Below the pieces are notes generated by a model. That model searched no databases. It worked only from the letters and a program-made list of their open reading frames with translations, and was not told where the DNA came from. A DNA stretch of 64,000 nt, taken from contig JAPPMP010000035.1 in the NCBI GenBank assembly GCA_028819005.1, forward strand, positions 9,501 to 73,500. The letters run 5' to 3'. A program made the translations under genes and the position numbers. The stretch comes from Acidimicrobiaceae bacterium (GTDB lineage: Bacteria; Actinomycetota; Acidimicrobiia; Acidimicrobiales; Aldehydirespiratoraceae). This document shows, piece by piece, positions 46,178-52,188 of the stretch; the first letter of the stretch is position 1, and each line of letters opens with the position of its first letter.

Positions 46178-47224
46178 TCAGCCTCTGGCCAACTCCAGCC
46201 AACCGTCCACCGTGGAGCGATTGGCCTCGATCCAAGCGTCGGCGTCCGCCCGGATCTCCTCTTCGGAGTAGTCGTCAGCGTCAGCCATCTTTGCGTTCTG
46301 CTCGACTATGTCGGCCAATGGGATGACAACCTGCTCGAGCAAGCGCTCGACGTCCGGGTTGTCGTTGAGGAAGTCTTTGTTGCCGACCGCTCGGATGCTG
46401 CTGACCGCCCAGCCGAGATTGCAAGGGTCCGAAGCGCAGCCACGGAGACCCCGAACTTCCGTCGTTCCCTCTTCGTCCTCAACCGCGTCAGCCTCGAGCC
46501 ACACCACCTCGGTTCCCGGTCTCAGCACCTCATAGGTCCAGTTGGGCGTCCAAGCGTAGAACAGGGTTGGCTGGCCGTCGGCCACCCTTTGGCGGACTCC
46601 GCTGATCAGATCGTTGTAGTCGCCCGAGATCTGCTCGACGTTGCTGCCCCAGTCGTGTTCGCTGATGTGCGTGTTGATGGTCCTGTGACAGGCCCATCCC
46701 TCGTTGCATCCGTTCAGGTCGGCGAGGCCGTCGCCATCGTGATCGAAGAGTTGCGCAACTGAAGCGTCGGACAACTGATTCATCGAGGTGATGTCGTGGG
46801 CGTCCGCTGTCGCCTTGTCGATCAGGTACCCCTGAAGCGCCCCTGATCGCACCTGGTAGCCGACCGGTTCGATATCTGTGTCGACCGACAGCCCGCTGAC
46901 CAGCTCTGCCTCCAGATAGATGTCGTGGAGCGGGAACCAGCCGTTGACCCACAGATCGTACTGGCCGCTGTCCAGAGCGGGATAGAAGCCGTTCGGATCG
47001 AGGGTGCCGGCGGCCGGGTCGCTGACCGTGTAGCCGAGTTCGCCAATGAGCTGGGCATAGATCGCCGCCTGCATGTAGCCGCTGTCCCAAGTCGCGCGTG
47101 CCATTGTCACAGTGCCGTCGTCATCGTCGTCGGAAGCGCAGGCAGTCAGCAGAAGCGACGTGACGGTCAGTATGCCCACAGCCAAGGTTGTGGTTCTTGT
47201 GAAGATCTTGCGGTTCTTCATCAT
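46178..47224 (-). CDS. Glycine-betaine-type substrate-binding lipoprotein (OpuAC family)
   Basis: A 348-residue lipoprotein: signal with lipobox LLTACAS, then an acidic linker and the OpuAC fold. Aromatic residues that could cage a quaternary amine are in MARATWDSGYMQ, DLWVNGWFP and YAWTPNWTY. Two cysteine pairs (GCNEGWAC and GCASDPC) could form disulfides. The ATG at 47224 has GAGGG six bases upstream; a GTG at 47257 overlaps the BCCT stop. No ABC permease or ATPase follows; its operon partner is a BCCT transporter. About half of its residues match the N-terminal domain of the channel-like receptor at 49274-51352. Confidence 0.9.
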   Translation of the reverse strand: MMKNRKIFTRTTTLAVGILTVTSLLLTACASDDDDDGTVTMARATWDSGYMQAAIYAQLIGELGYTVSDPAAGTLDPNGFYPALDSGQYDLWVNGWFPLHDIYLEAELVSGLSVDTDIEPVGYQVRSGALQGYLIDKATADAHDITSMNQLSDASVAQLFDHDGDGLADLNGCNEGWACHRTINTHISEHDWGSNVEQISGDYNDLISGVRQRVADGQPTLFYAWTPNWTYEVLRPGTEVVWLEADAVEDEEGTTEVRGLRGCASDPCNLGWAVSSIRAVGNKDFLNDNPDVERLLEQVVIPLADIVEQNAKMADADDYSEEEIRADADAWIEANRSTVDGWLELARG

Positions 47225-47253
47225 TGGTGCCCTCGCGTTCTCATGTGTGCCGG

Positions 47254-49083
47254 TCACGTCTTGGTCCTCTCACTGAGACGCGATCCGACCTTTTCAATCA
47301 GTCCCTTATGGCGGTTGCGGAAGATCACATCGTCATAGTGATCCTCAAGCATGTCGAGCTCTTCCTTGAATGCAATGAGGAGGCTCCAGCACATCACCAG
47401 AAGGATCAGCGCGAACGGGAGCCCCGTTGCGACCGCAGCGGTCTGGAGCGCTCCGAGGCCTCCGCCGAGCAACAACACCACGGCCACCGCGCCTTCCATG
47501 ATCGCCCAGAACACCCGCTGGGGTTTGGGAGAGTCGAGCTTGCCTCCCGAAGTCAGGTGGTCGACGACCAACGAACCCGAGTCCGAGGAGGTCACGAAGA
47601 ACGAGATCAACAACAGCACCCCGATGAACGACACGAGTCCGGTCAGCGGGAACGCCTCGAGCATGTCGAACAGGGCTGTCGCAACATTGTCATTGACGGC
47701 CGACGCCACATCGCGTTCGCCGCTGATCTGCAGGTCGATCGCTGATCCGCCGAAGACGGCCATCCACAAGAAGCACAGGATCGACGGCAGGAAGATGACG
47801 CCCAAGAGCAGCTCTCGCACGGAACGCCCTTTTGAGATCCGCGCGATGAACATCCCGACGAAGGGAGACCAGGAAATCCACCATCCCCAGTAGAAGATGG
47901 TCCAACCTGCCTGCCAGGAAGTGCCTGTGAGGGCCTCGTTCCAGAACGAGAGCTCCGGCAGGACCTGCACGTAGTACCCCACACTCTGCGTGTACAGCGA
48001 GAGGATGAACAGCGTCGGGCCGACCAGCAGCACGAAGAGCAGGAAAGCCGCCGCCAACCAGATGTTGAGCTCGCTGAGACGTTTCACGCCGGCGTCGAGC
48101 CCCGCGACCACCGAAATGGTGGCCAAGCCCGTAATGGCCGCGATGAGCAATATCTGGAAGGTCGTGTTGTCGGGCGTGCCGAACAGCTTGTTGAGTCCGG
48201 CCGAAGCCTGGCCCGCTCCGAAGCCGAGCGACGTCGCCAACCCGAACAGGGTCGCCACCACAGTCAGCGTGTCGATGGCGTTGCCCCAGTTTCCGTAGAT
48301 CTTCGGACCGAGGATCGGGTAGAAGATCGAGCGGAAGGTGAGCGGCAGGCCGCGGTTGTAGGCGAAGAAGCCCAATGCCAGCGCGACCAGGGCGTACAGC
48401 GACCAGCCGTGAATGCCCCAATGCAAGTAGGTCGTCGCCATCGCCGCTTTGGCAGCTTCTCCGGTGTTGGCCTCCACACCGAAGACCGGTGGCGGTGAAC
48501 TGAGATGGAAGATCGGCTCGGCGACCCCCCAGAACATCAGGCCGATGCCGAGTCCTGCCGACAACAACATCGCGTACCAGGACACCGTCGAGAACTCTGG
48601 TCTGGCGAAGGGTCCCCCGAGCCGGATCTTGCCGAACCGGCTGAGAGCGAAGAACAGCGCCACACCGACGAAAATGTTGAAGTCGATGATGTAGAGCCAA
48701 CCCAGGCTGCTGTTGATGAAGTCGAGGATCGAACTGAACGCGTCCGAGGTTCTCTCCTCGAAGATGAGCGACAGCGCGATGAAGACCGAAAGGAAACCAG
48801 CAGCCGAGAATGTCACCTGCGGATGGATGTCGAACCCGGCCCGGACGATGTTGCGGTCCCCCGGCTCGCGGTCCGCGACTTCAGGGTAGAAGTCGATGTC
48901 GGGATCGATCTGGAGCCCTTCGAACTTGGCGCGGTTGTGGATTGCCGCCTCGCGCGCCCGTTCTTCTTCCTCCTCCCAGTCATGGAGGGCCAACGTGGCC
49001 TCTGTGAGATCAATGTCCGTGTCGTCGGGACTTCGATGAATCCGCGGATTCCCAGCTCCCGTGCTCTCTCCGGCCTCGTCCAT
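47254..49083 (-). CDS. BCCT-family betaine/carnitine/choline transporter
   Basis: Sodium- or proton-coupled uptake of a quaternary amine. The 609-residue protein has a hydrophilic, acidic N-terminus of about 80 residues and roughly 12 membrane helices. Characteristic parts are MFWGVAEPIFHLSSPPP, YLHWGIHGWSLYALVALALG and the signature WTIFYWGWWISWSPFVGMFI. The ATG at 49083 has GGAGGG five bases upstream. The end overlaps the possible GTG start of the binding-protein gene, so the two are likely one operon. The C-terminal tail is charged (EELDMLEDHYDDV...), where osmosensing resides in BetP-type carriers. Confidence 0.94.
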   Translation of the reverse strand: MDEAGESTGAGNPRIHRSPDDTDIDLTEATLALHDWEEEEERAREAAIHNRAKFEGLQIDPDIDFYPEVADREPGDRNIVRAGFDIHPQVTFSAAGFLSVFIALSLIFEERTSDAFSSILDFINSSLGWLYIIDFNIFVGVALFFALSRFGKIRLGGPFARPEFSTVSWYAMLLSAGLGIGLMFWGVAEPIFHLSSPPPVFGVEANTGEAAKAAMATTYLHWGIHGWSLYALVALALGFFAYNRGLPLTFRSIFYPILGPKIYGNWGNAIDTLTVVATLFGLATSLGFGAGQASAGLNKLFGTPDNTTFQILLIAAITGLATISVVAGLDAGVKRLSELNIWLAAAFLLFVLLVGPTLFILSLYTQSVGYYVQVLPELSFWNEALTGTSWQAGWTIFYWGWWISWSPFVGMFIARISKGRSVRELLLGVIFLPSILCFLWMAVFGGSAIDLQISGERDVASAVNDNVATALFDMLEAFPLTGLVSFIGVLLLISFFVTSSDSGSLVVDHLTSGGKLDSPKPQRVFWAIMEGAVAVVLLLGGGLGALQTAAVATGLPFALILLVMCWSLLIAFKEELDMLEDHYDDVIFRNRHKGLIEKVGSRLSERTKT

Positions 49084-49135
49084 CACGACCCTCCGATTTT
49101 CTTGGCGGCAATTTAAAAACCCACGACGAGATAAC

Positions 49136-49164
49136 TGCTATCACGCATACAGATCATTCGTCAA
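49136..49164 (-). promoter_or_regulatory. Possible promoter of the BCCT/binding-protein operon
   Basis: On the minus strand TTGACG (49164-49159) is followed after 17 bp by ATAGCA (49141-49136), about 50 bp before the transporter start. The divergent region 49087-49273 is A/T-rich near the transporter. No operator could be named. Confidence 0.35.
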
Positions 49165-49273
49165 GCACAAACCGATGCCGTCCCGAACAACCCCCCGCGG
49201 ACCACCCTGAACGCCCGTCAGGTTGCGCGACCATGAGCGGGCTAGCGTTGGTCGTGTCCAAGGGGGTTAAACC

Positions 49274-51352
49274 ATGCGCCGAGCCGCCAGCGCAGTTCTG
49301 ACGATCCTTGTTCTCGTGGTGCTCCTGCAGCTGCCGGGCGGAGCGACCAACCATGGACAGTCGACCGGGACTGCGGTGCGCATGGCGCGCGCCACCTGGG
49401 ACACCGGCTGGTTCCAGGCCGAGGTCTACCGGCTGCTGCTAGAGCGCTTGGGCTACGAAGTCGAAGGGCCGGTGACAATGAACAACCCGGAGTTCTACGA
49501 CGCCGTCGACGCCGGAGATGTGGACCTCTGGGTCAACGGCTGGTTCCCGGCGCACGATGTGTTCGTCGCCGACCGTGAAACGGTCGAAAAAGTCGGCACA
49601 GCCGTAGACGACGGAGCGCTGCAAGGCTATTTCGTCGACGCTGCCACCGCCGAAGCCCACGGAATAACGAACCTGGGCGACTTGGCCGATCCCGAAATCG
49701 CTGCCCTGTTCGACCATGACGGCGACGGGCGGGCCGACCTGGTGGGATGCGAGCACGGCTGGTCCTGCGCGATGACAATAGACCATCACCTGGAGGTCTA
49801 TGGACTGAACCGCACAGTTGAGCACGTTCAGGGCCAGTATTCACCCCGGATAGCCGAGACCATCGCCCGCCAGCGAGCCGGAGAACCCGTCCTCTACTAC
49901 ACATGGACCCCCAACTGGACGGTGGGCGTGTTGGCCCCCGGTCGGGAGGCGGTGTGGTTGGAGACTCCGTTCCCATCGCTCCCCGAGAGCACCGCTGCCG
50001 AGTTCGAACAGGGCTCCATTGCCGGGATTCCGGGATGCGCCAGCGATCCCTGCGCCACGGGCTGGCCCCCCAATGACATCAGGGCGGTGGCCAACTCCGA
50101 GTTTCTCGACGCCAACCCGTCAGTGCGACGGCTCTTGGAGCAAGTGGTCATCCCCCTTGATGACATTTCTGCACAGAACGCGAGGCTGGTGAGAGAAGGC
50201 GGAGACCCCGAGGACATACAACGTCACGCCCAAGAGTGGATTGACGCCAACTCGGCGTCGGTGGATCAATGGATCTTCGCAGCCGATCCCGACGCGGTCG
50301 CGCTGACGGACTCAACAGGCGACGACGCGGTCAGAGCCGGGACCCTGAGTGTTGCGGCGCGTCCCGTCGCTCCGTTCGTGATTTACGACAATGGCTCCTA
50401 CAGCGGATACGAAGTGGAACTCGTCCGGTTGCTCGCCGCCAATCTCGGTATGTCGGTTGAGATCTACGCGGTCGACACCGTCGCCAAACAGATCGACGAC
50501 ATAGACCGCGGGATCGCCAGAGTCGGGCTCGGAGGGGTGTCGATCACCGAGTCGCGCGAGGAAGTGGTCGATTTCACGCTGCCTGTGCTCGACTCGGGCC
50601 TGACCATCCTGACGCCAACGCGGGACTCGCGAGATATAGGTGATCGGATATTGGCCTTCTTCGACGCCATCGCCTCGTCGGACCTTCCCTGGTTGTTGGC
50701 AGTCTTCGGAATCGCGGTGCTCGTCGCCGCACACCTGGTCTGGTTCTTGGAGCGCCATCACAATCCCGATTTCGCGGTCCCCTACCGCCGAGGCATCTGG
50801 GACTCTTTCTATTGGTCGGTGGTGACGATGAGCACCGTCGGCTACGGAGACAAGGTTGCCCGCCGCACCAGTGGCCGCGTGCTGGCGTTGGTCTGGATTG
50901 CCCTGGGGACCTTGGTCTTTGCCAGCTTCACCGCGGCCATCGCCTCTTCGTTGGCGGTCAGCGAACTCAGATCAGACATCTCCGGGCCTTCGGATCTGCA
51001 CGGCCGCAGGGTAGCGACTGCCACTAACTCCGCTGCTGAGGCATACCTTCCCTCTATCGGAGTGGGTCCTGTGCTCGTTGACAACATAGACGACGCCTAC
51101 CCTCTGATGTTGGAGGGCGAAGTCGACGCGATTGTGTTCGACGCCCCGGTGCTGGACTTCCATGCGGCCCGAGAAGGCGCAGGGGAGGTGACAACGCTCG
51201 GAACAGACTTTGAGAGAGTCCAATACGGGCTGATGCTCAATGAGGACGATCCTGGGCTGCGAGAGAGCCTCAACCTCGCGCTGCTCGACCTGATCGAGAA
51301 CGGCGTTCACGGCCGACTGCACGACACCTGGTTCGGAGCGGAGAAAAACTAG
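49274..51352 (+). CDS. Betaine-binding-domain / GluR0-like ligand-gated K+ channel fusion
   Basis: A 692-residue membrane protein. Residues 1-25: signal or anchor helix. About 33-335: OpuAC-type domain with aromatic residues in RATWDTGWFQ (W42, W46), DLWVNGWFP (W86, W90) and YTWTPNW (W211, W215), like the nearby lipoprotein. About 352-450: first lobe of an SBP_bac_3 fold (YSGYEVELVRLLAANLGMSV, GGVSITESREEVVDFTLPVL). 471-492: membrane helix. 506-528: re-entrant pore with potassium selectivity filter TVGYGD (521-526). 534-560: second membrane helix. 568-690: second SBP lobe (GRRVATATNSAAEAYLPS, AIVFDAPVLDFH). This S1-TM-P-TM-S2 order is that of prokaryotic glutamate receptors (GluR0), here with an extra betaine-type domain in place of an amino-terminal domain. 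AAGGGGG seven bases before the ATG. Ligand and gating are inferred. Confidence 0.9.
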   Translation: MRRAASAVLTILVLVVLLQLPGGATNHGQSTGTAVRMARATWDTGWFQAEVYRLLLERLGYEVEGPVTMNNPEFYDAVDAGDVDLWVNGWFPAHDVFVADRETVEKVGTAVDDGALQGYFVDAATAEAHGITNLGDLADPEIAALFDHDGDGRADLVGCEHGWSCAMTIDHHLEVYGLNRTVEHVQGQYSPRIAETIARQRAGEPVLYYTWTPNWTVGVLAPGREAVWLETPFPSLPESTAAEFEQGSIAGIPGCASDPCATGWPPNDIRAVANSEFLDANPSVRRLLEQVVIPLDDISAQNARLVREGGDPEDIQRHAQEWIDANSASVDQWIFAADPDAVALTDSTGDDAVRAGTLSVAARPVAPFVIYDNGSYSGYEVELVRLLAANLGMSVEIYAVDTVAKQIDDIDRGIARVGLGGVSITESREEVVDFTLPVLDSGLTILTPTRDSRDIGDRILAFFDAIASSDLPWLLAVFGIAVLVAAHLVWFLERHHNPDFAVPYRRGIWDSFYWSVVTMSTVGYGDKVARRTSGRVLALVWIALGTLVFASFTAAIASSLAVSELRSDISGPSDLHGRRVATATNSAAEAYLPSIGVGPVLVDNIDDAYPLMLEGEVDAIVFDAPVLDFHAAREGAGEVTTLGTDFERVQYGLMLNEDDPGLRESLNLALLDLIENGVHGRLHDTWFGAEKN

Positions 51353-51441: not shown

Positions 51442-52188
51442 GTGGAATATGAGCCGACAGCCGACTTGGCTGTTCGCGGTCGCGAGATCAGCGCAGTGGT
51501 CCGGTCGGCGCCTGAGCGTCGGGCGATTGCGAGCGTCCACGGCGATCTGACCTTCGCTGAGCTGGACCGGATGTATGCCGCCACAGAAGGCCCGGGAACC
51601 TGGATCCAACCCCAGGAGTGGCTCGACCATCCCGGAAGCGTCGGACGGACCGATCCAACCCGGTTGCAGATCCGGCTCGACGCCGGCGAAGTCGCGGAAC
51701 CGCTCCAAGACGGCACTGTCTGGTCACGAGCCACGACCCCGTTCCACTATCACGACGACCCGGACAAGACCGCCGCGACTTTTGACGCCTCCGGTGAGTG
51801 GTACACCGTCGGGGACCGCGGCCACGTCGACGAAGACGGCTACCTGTACCTCACCGGACGCACCGCCGAGTGTGTGGTTTCGGGCGGTGTGAACCTCTAC
51901 CCGGCTCGCGTCGACGAGGCGCTCATCAGCCATCCGGACGTTCGTGACGGCGCTGCTTTCGCGCTTGGGGACGCCGAACTCGGGGAGGTGATGGCTGCTG
52001 CGGTCATTCCCGCCGCCGGAGCCTCAAGCGACGGTCTGATTGAATCGATCATCGCTCATTGCCGAGAGACCATCGGCTCGCAGCTCACACCGCGACAGGT
52101 GTTCATCGTCGACGATCTACCTCGCACAGAAGCCGGAAAGCTCTACCGCCACCGACTCGTCGAACAGTTCTCGGACCACGATCAATAG
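51442..52188 (+). pseudogene. AMP-dependent acyl-CoA ligase with large internal deletion
   Basis: Reading from GTG 51442 the first 44 residues match the N-terminus of an acyl-CoA ligase (SAPERRAIASVHGDLTFAEL). They jump directly to YAATEGPGTW, the A5-like motif normally some 250 residues further on, and continue with the C-terminal parts GEWYTVGDRGHVDEDGYLYL, TGRTAECVVSGGVNLYPARV and PRTEAGKLYRHRL. The ATP-binding SGTTGxPKG motif is missing. The frame is intact across the junction near 51571, so a shortened protein of 248 residues could be made, but not an active ligase. Confidence 0.8.

What the first reader, a model, noticed from the sequence alone, without database searches (positions are those of the whole stretch)
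49274..51352. Betaine-binding-type domain fused to a GluR0-like potassium channel
One 692-residue chain holds, in order, an OpuAC-type domain (aromatic residues in ATWDTGW, DLWVNGW, YTWTPNW), the first lobe of an amino-acid-type binding fold, a membrane helix, a pore loop with the K+ filter TVGYGD, a second membrane helix, and the second lobe. Known prokaryotic glutamate receptors (GluR0 type) have the last five parts only. The extra domain stands where animal receptors have their amino-terminal domain, and its closest visible relative is the binding lipoprotein encoded 2 kb away. A betaine-modulated K+ channel would connect the two main osmolytes, K+ and betaine, in one molecule. The architecture is read directly; ligand identity, gating and ion selectivity are inferred. 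I do not know of a described example of this fusion.
Basis: partly seen in the sequence, partly recalled or inferred. Interest (0 to 1): 0.96.

Follow-up and report, generated by a model that had tools for sequence, protein, structure and literature searches.

The report
Betaine-sensor domain on glutamate-receptor channel
A group of mostly sponge-dwelling bacteria carries a potassium channel of the primitive glutamate-receptor type with a betaine-binding domain fused to its outer end, always encoded beside a betaine importer, which suggests one protein that links the cell's two main osmotic solutes; binding and channel activity are not yet tested.

Summary
One uninterrupted 692-aa ORF (49274-51352, +) encodes signal peptide, ProX/OpuAC domain, GluR0-type S1, membrane helix, pore loop with TVGYGD, second helix, S2. 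It is not an assembly join: 40 distinct fusion sequences occur in independent assemblies (Acidimicrobiia, plus three genomes of one sister class). Each half gives one clade (single origin) under purifying selection. The betaine-box residues of E. coli ProX, the amino-acid-binding Arg/Asp of GluR0 and the K+ filter are conserved. A whole-chain model matches betaine-bound ProX (Z 37) and the Nostoc GluR0 ligand core (Z 26.5). In 33/33 Acidimicrobiia loci with sufficient flank, and in three sister-class loci, a BCCT transporter lies beside it (with its own ProX where the contig reaches), in three gene arrangements. No description of this architecture was found in the searched library. Best reading: a betaine-responsive K+ channel working with the BCCT betaine importer, exchanging K+ for betaine. 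Architecture and partnership are shown; ligands, gating direction and conductance are inferred. The resemblance to animal receptors is positional only: their amino-terminal domain is a different binding-protein type. New variant of a known kind.

The parts
49274..51352 (+). fusion gene, 692 aa: signal peptide, OpuAC/ProX domain, GluR0-type ligand-gated K+ channel
   Evidence: full-length orthologues
49260..49266 (+). ribosome-binding-site-like AAGGGGG, 7 nt before the ATG
   Evidence: sequence
49274..49348 (+). signal peptide region (residues 1-25, hydrophobic stretch 4-22)
49364..50293 (+). OpuAC/ProX domain (residues 31-340) with conserved betaine-box residues W90, H94, W163, W211 and C159/C165
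   Evidence: Pfam PF04069 E 9e-48; 1r9l E 5.5e-60, Z 37.0; residue map
50294..50341 (+). low-confidence linker (residues 341-356)
   Evidence: model pLDDT below 50 at 343-354
50342..50638 (+). S1, first lobe of the amino-acid-type ligand-binding domain (residues 357-455), Arg428
   Evidence: 2pyy Z 26.5
50684..50752 (+). first membrane helix (residues 471-493)
50783..50851 (+). pore helix and K+ selectivity filter TVGYGD (residues 504-526; filter 521-526 = 50834-50851)
   Evidence: Ion_trans_2; filter identical in 41/41 fusion rows
50867..50968 (+). second membrane helix (residues 532-565)
50969..51343 (+). S2, second lobe of the ligand-binding domain (residues 566-690), Asp623
47254..49086 (-). 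BCCT-family betaine/choline/carnitine transporter, 610 aa, the only BCCT of the genome; cassette partner
   Evidence: Pfam PF02028 E 8e-190; one hit in the genome; linkage
46178..47257 (-). ProX lipoprotein (359 aa), start overlaps the BCCT stop by 4 nt; cassette partner
   Evidence: linkage
49087..49273 (.). 187-bp region between the divergent BCCT and fusion genes (no sigma-70-like site found)

Best explanation
The protein is a K+-selective, GluR0-type ligand-gated channel, presumably a tetramer with both ends outside, that has gained a ProX-type betaine-sensing domain at its N-terminus. It belongs to a three-gene unit: a BCCT betaine importer, a membrane-anchored ProX, and the betaine-sensing channel. 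Proposed mechanism: outside, betaine or a close quaternary-ammonium osmolyte closes the OpuAC domain, while an amino acid, possibly glutamate released with K+, closes the S1-S2 domain. Together they open or prime the K+ pore. K+ then leaves as the BCCT (presumably Na+-coupled) brings betaine in, which offsets the charge carried by uptake and lets the cell replace K+ with the compatible solute. Shown: architecture, intact pockets and filter, single origin, selection on all parts, strict gene linkage. Inferred: tetramer, ligand identities, direction of gating, K+ flux and osmotic role.
For: Domains. Whole-chain model (pLDDT 80.2) matches E. coli ProX with betaine (Z 37.0, rmsd 2.0 over 304 residues) and the Nostoc GluR0 core with glutamate (Z 26.5, 2.1 over 214), and animal receptor LBD-membrane chains. 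Pocket: Trp65, Trp140, Trp188, His69 equivalents W 40/40, W 41/41, W 36 + F 5, H 36 + Q 4; cysteines 41/41. Arg428, Asp623 and TVGYGD 41/41. One clade for each half. dN/dS 0.03-0.37 in every segment. BCCT adjacent in 33/33 Acidimicrobiia loci with flank and in three sister-class loci, in divergent, convergent and co-directional order; no other gene of the window is shared by all. In three genomes BCCT, ProX and fusion follow one another on one strand. Physiology: hyperosmotic cells take up K+ first, then import compatible solutes and export K+ (PMC8844918); Synechocystis GluR0 conducts K+ with both ends outside and affects cell volume under KCl shock (PMC13099474).
Against: No binding, current or flux data exist for any member. 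A conserved pocket does not separate glycine betaine from proline betaine, DMSP, TMAO or choline. The glutamate side-chain site has drifted (Thr of Nostoc GluR0 is Ala587 in 36/41), so the S1-S2 ligand may not be glutamate. Gene linkage shows partnership, not direction of coupling. The model's mutual domain placement is poor (pTM 0.51), so no allosteric contact is shown.
Confidence: 0.6

Rival explanations
1. The OpuAC domain captures and hands over betaine to the neighbouring BCCT, or holds the channel next to it; the channel is gated by the S1-S2 ligand alone and serves to balance charge during uptake.
For: Linkage to BCCT is strict; the BCCT-ProX pair already exists without the fusion in the sister class, so binding proteins of this type appear to serve BCCT.
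Against: A separate anchored ProX is already present in the unit, so a second capture domain would be redundant; the position before S1 is the classic site for a regulatory domain.
Confidence: 0.2
2. The first domain senses another methylated solute (proline betaine, choline, DMSP, TMAO, carnitine), perhaps as a host or food signal in sponges, not an osmotic one.
For: The model also matches choline-, DMSP- and TMAO-binding proteins; five members have Phe for Trp188 and four Gln for His69; most genomes appear to be sponge-derived.
Against: Best match by far is betaine-bound E. coli ProX (Z 37 vs about 24-25) with the same Trp box.
Confidence: 0.12
3. The OpuAC domain is only an assembly or stabilising module that no longer binds ligand.
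For: In artificial receptor-channel chimeras amino-terminal domains proved less important for assembly than expected and partly dispensable (PMC12332018).
Against: Pocket residues and the two cysteines are kept in nearly all of 40 distinct sequences across two classes, and the domain is under purifying selection.
Confidence: 0.06
4. Assembly or gene-calling artefact that joins a ProX gene to a GluR0 gene.
For: None beyond the unusual order.
Against: Same full-length frame in dozens of independent assemblies.
Confidence: 0.01

Closest known systems
GluR0 of Synechocystis and Nostoc (prokaryotic K+-selective glutamate receptors)
   Same: signal peptide, S1-helix-pore loop-helix-S2 order, TVGYGD-type filter, ligand Arg and Asp, two membrane helices, no M4
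   Different: [quoted passage not shown] here a 300-residue OpuAC domain precedes S1, and the Thr of the glutamate side-chain site is mostly Ala
ProX, glycine betaine-binding protein of the ProU ABC transporter (E. coli, 1r9l)
   Same: whole domain, Trp box, His69, two cysteines
   Different: fused to a channel, encoded with a BCCT and not beside ABC subunits
Animal ionotropic glutamate receptors
   Same: an extra binding-protein-like domain before S1; pore between S1 and S2
   Different: their amino-terminal domain is LIVBP type (ANF_receptor), they have M4 and a different filter; the similarity of position is independent in origin (inference)
BCCT transporter with ProX in the sister class (L107, L108, L110, L111)
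   Same: same BCCT and ProX side by side
   Different: no channel fusion

Membership tests
prokaryotic ionotropic glutamate receptor (GluR0 type) | S1, membrane helix, pore loop, membrane helix, S2 in one chain | tested here: met
prokaryotic ionotropic glutamate receptor (GluR0 type) | K+ selectivity filter TVGYG | tested here: met
   41/41 fusion rows TVGYGD
prokaryotic ionotropic glutamate receptor (GluR0 type) | Arg in S1 and Asp in S2 for the ligand's carboxylate and amino groups | tested here: met
   Arg428 and Asp623, 41/41; rule from PMC2950845
prokaryotic ionotropic glutamate receptor (GluR0 type) | no further extracellular domain before S1 (as in described members) | tested here: not met
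   OpuAC at 35-324; this is the novelty, so it is filed as a variant
prokaryotic ionotropic glutamate receptor (GluR0 type) | glutamate-gated K+ current, tetramer | not testable with these tools
   needs expression and electrophysiology
ProX / OpuAC betaine-binding proteins | family profile above curated cut-off | tested here: met
   PF04069 163.5 vs 21.2 bits; NF008334 343.7 vs 215 bits
ProX / OpuAC betaine-binding proteins | aromatic box Trp65, Trp140, Trp188 (E. coli numbering, from memory of the 1r9l study) | tested here: met
   W90, W163, W211
ProX / OpuAC betaine-binding proteins | free or lipid-anchored protein serving an ABC transporter | tested here: not met
   fused to a channel; no ABC genes in the conserved unit; ProV-type ATPases lie on other contigs
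animal-type receptor with amino-terminal domain | LIVBP-type (ANF_receptor) amino-terminal domain | tested here: not met
   only OpuAC and a weak Phosphonate-bd match in residues 1-340
animal-type receptor with amino-terminal domain | third membrane helix (M4) after S2 | tested here: not met
   chain ends at residue 692 after S2, no further helix

The most novel reading that the evidence does not exclude
A bacterial glutamate-receptor channel with a working allosteric amino-terminal domain: a coincidence detector in which external betaine (OpuAC) and an amino acid (S1-S2) together open a K+ pore, so that K+ release is directly coupled to betaine import by the BCCT partner. Bacteria would thus have evolved a ligand-binding amino-terminal receptor domain independently of animals and plants.
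Probability: 0.4. Interest if true: 0.94.

Novelty: new variant of a known kind. Interest (0 to 1): 0.88.

Why it matters
Prokaryotic glutamate receptors are described as lacking the amino-terminal domain that tunes animal receptors. A conserved, naturally two-sensor member gives a simple system for studying how such a domain controls a channel, and shows the step taken independently with a different binding protein. It also offers a candidate molecular link for a long-known but loosely explained event, the exchange of K+ for compatible solutes after osmotic shock, and a first idea of what glutamate-receptor channels do in non-photosynthetic bacteria.

Tried and rejected
Assembly join or frameshift: rejected. 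Recent fusion from the adjacent ProX: not supported by the tree, though its root is uncertain (midpoint, one distant outside row). Fusion on plasmids: none covers 80% of the query. Viral collection: mostly short K+ channel matches and two plain GluR0-like proteins, no fusion seen. Other phyla could only be searched by the one genome-contig scan, whose peptide patterns (IWDSFYW, AVDT[VT]AKQ) reach close relatives only (the sister-class members have IWDSFWW), so fusions outside Actinomycetota are not excluded. The first structure model was weak (pLDDT 65) and was replaced by one with neighbouring ProX and GluR0-like rows added. Promoter and terminator scans gave nothing. L083, which seemed a plain channel inside the fusion clade, is a fusion cut by a contig end. 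L019 was a chance GYGD match. Literature: no paper combines the two domains in the library searched, but most subscription journals are not held.

Full report
What is there. The ORF at 49274-51352 (+) is continuous, 692 codons, ATG start with AAGGGGG seven bases before it. Pfam finds OpuAC at residues 35-324 (E 9e-48), SBP_bac_3 split over 361-688 (E 1.4e-22), Ion_trans_2 at 483-560 (E 1.4e-14) and Lig_chan at 478-578 (E 4e-13). NCBIfam places the first part in ProX above its curated cut-off. In the PDB sequences the best matches are E. coli ProX (1r9l, E 5.5e-60, residues 32-336) and the Nostoc GluR0 ligand core (2pyy, E 1.7e-34); no listed chain covers both parts. Apart from the signal peptide there are two membrane helices, with TVGYGD between them.

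Structure. A model built with 38 related sequences has mean pLDDT 80.2 and pTM 0.51. Residues 27-341 superpose on betaine-bound ProX with Z 37.0, rmsd 2.0 over 304 residues; residues 357-691 on the Nostoc GluR0 core with Z 26.5, rmsd 2.1 over 214. Foldseek adds ligand-binding plus membrane parts of animal AMPA and delta receptors. The relative placement of the domains and the tetramer are not determined.

Not an artefact, not unique. In the same family 13 of 51 genomes hold the protein, 74-93% identical (one is cut by a contig end). A scan of 84,980 species genomes with the channel half returned 38 loci, all Acidimicrobiia or unnamed MAGs; 35 encode both halves in a complete frame, L063 and L083 are cut by contig ends and L088 is a broken remnant. 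A search across the phylum found three more, 49-56% identical over the searched part, all in one other class of the phylum. I hold 40 distinct fusion sequences (41 rows in the residue counts, because the window gene occurs twice). The isolate prefixes RHO, COS, APA and CO match sponge species sampled in PMC8163846, so most hosts are probably sponges; this is an inference from names.

One origin, kept by selection. OpuAC domains of the fusions and 48 stand-alone ProX proteins fall on opposite sides of one branch (98/95). The channel halves form one clade against plain GluR0 proteins (100/99), the single exception being L083, a fusion cut by a contig end. dN/dS is 0.03-0.37 for all segments in five pairs.

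Working parts. The residues aligned with E. coli ProX Trp65, His69, Trp140 and Trp188 are W90, H94, W163 and W211. Over the fusion rows they are W 40/40, H 36 and Q 4, W 41/41, W 36 and F 5; both cysteines are 41/41. That these residues form the betaine pocket is from my knowledge of the 1r9l study. In the second sensor Arg428 and Asp623, which hold the ligand's carboxylate and amino groups in GluR0 (PMC2950845), are 41/41, and TVGYGD is 41/41. The Thr near the glutamate side chain in Nostoc GluR0 is Ala in 36/41, so the amino-acid ligand may differ from glutamate.

Partners. On the opposite strand, 187 bases away, lie a BCCT transporter (47254-49086) and a ProX lipoprotein (46178-47257) whose start overlaps the BCCT stop by four bases. 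All 33 Acidimicrobiia fusion loci with enough flank have this BCCT beside the fusion, with its ProX wherever the contig reaches (L052 is cut inside the BCCT); so do the three sister-class loci. The arrangement varies: divergent in most, BCCT-ProX-fusion on one strand in L055, L058 and L084, convergent in L080, L081 and the three sister-class loci. Across the window and 16 loci compared, these were the only window genes shared by all. The BCCT is the only one in this genome, while ProV-type ATPases are on other contigs. Linkage that survives rearrangement is strong evidence of joint function. The BCCT-ProX pair also exists without the channel in the sister class, so the channel may have joined an older pair.

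How it probably works. After osmotic upshift bacteria take up K+, then import or make compatible solutes and export K+ (PMC8844918). Synechocystis GluR0 conducts K+, has both ends outside and affects cell volume under KCl shock; its authors suggest activation by effluxed glutamate (PMC13099474). BCCT betaine importers are commonly Na+-coupled and electrogenic (general knowledge). A channel that senses external betaine, encoded with the importer, would let K+ out when betaine is available and balance the charge of uptake. The direction of gating, the ligands and the K+ flux are inferred. The main rival is a capture or tethering role for the extra domain.

Novelty. Published accounts and a survey of 100 prokaryotic sequences describe no such domain before S1 (PMC6385376; PMC2950845), and searches for the combination returned nothing. 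The library lacks most subscription papers. The similarity to animal receptors is one of position: their amino-terminal domain is another binding-protein type. [quoted passage not shown]

Noticed in passing
46178-49086: A BCCT secondary transporter overlaps by 4 nt with its own anchored ProX binding protein; the pair is conserved with and without the fusion (L107, L108, L110, L111). BCCT carriers are not known to me to use binding proteins, so this pair deserves study in itself.
   Followed up: partly
L053, L054, L057, L061, L062, L064, L066, L085, L086 (ProX genes): The cassette ProX is a lipoprotein in most genomes but in these it has an N-terminal membrane helix (VVALVVIFSGEEED-like) and no lipobox: the anchor type changes, anchoring itself is kept.
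   Followed up: no
L102:6584-7468 (G632 contig 33): Remnant of the fusion lacking the OpuAC domain, first membrane helix and pore helix, while BCCT and ProX beside it are intact; deletion or assembly collapse.
   Followed up: partly
L088:7767-8833: Broken fusion gene (two frames, only the end of OpuAC) without BCCT or ProX within 8 kb: apparently decays where the partners are absent.
   Followed up: no
L038:1501-2493 and relatives: GluR0-like proteins of the same order in which the filter GYGD is replaced (TGGEAV in L038; 5 of 19 plain rows), so probably not K+-selective.
   Followed up: no
51442-52188: Short AMP-binding enzyme (248 aa) with the C-terminal domain but apparently most of the N-terminal domain missing: an internally deleted acyl-CoA synthetase-like gene.
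   Followed up: no
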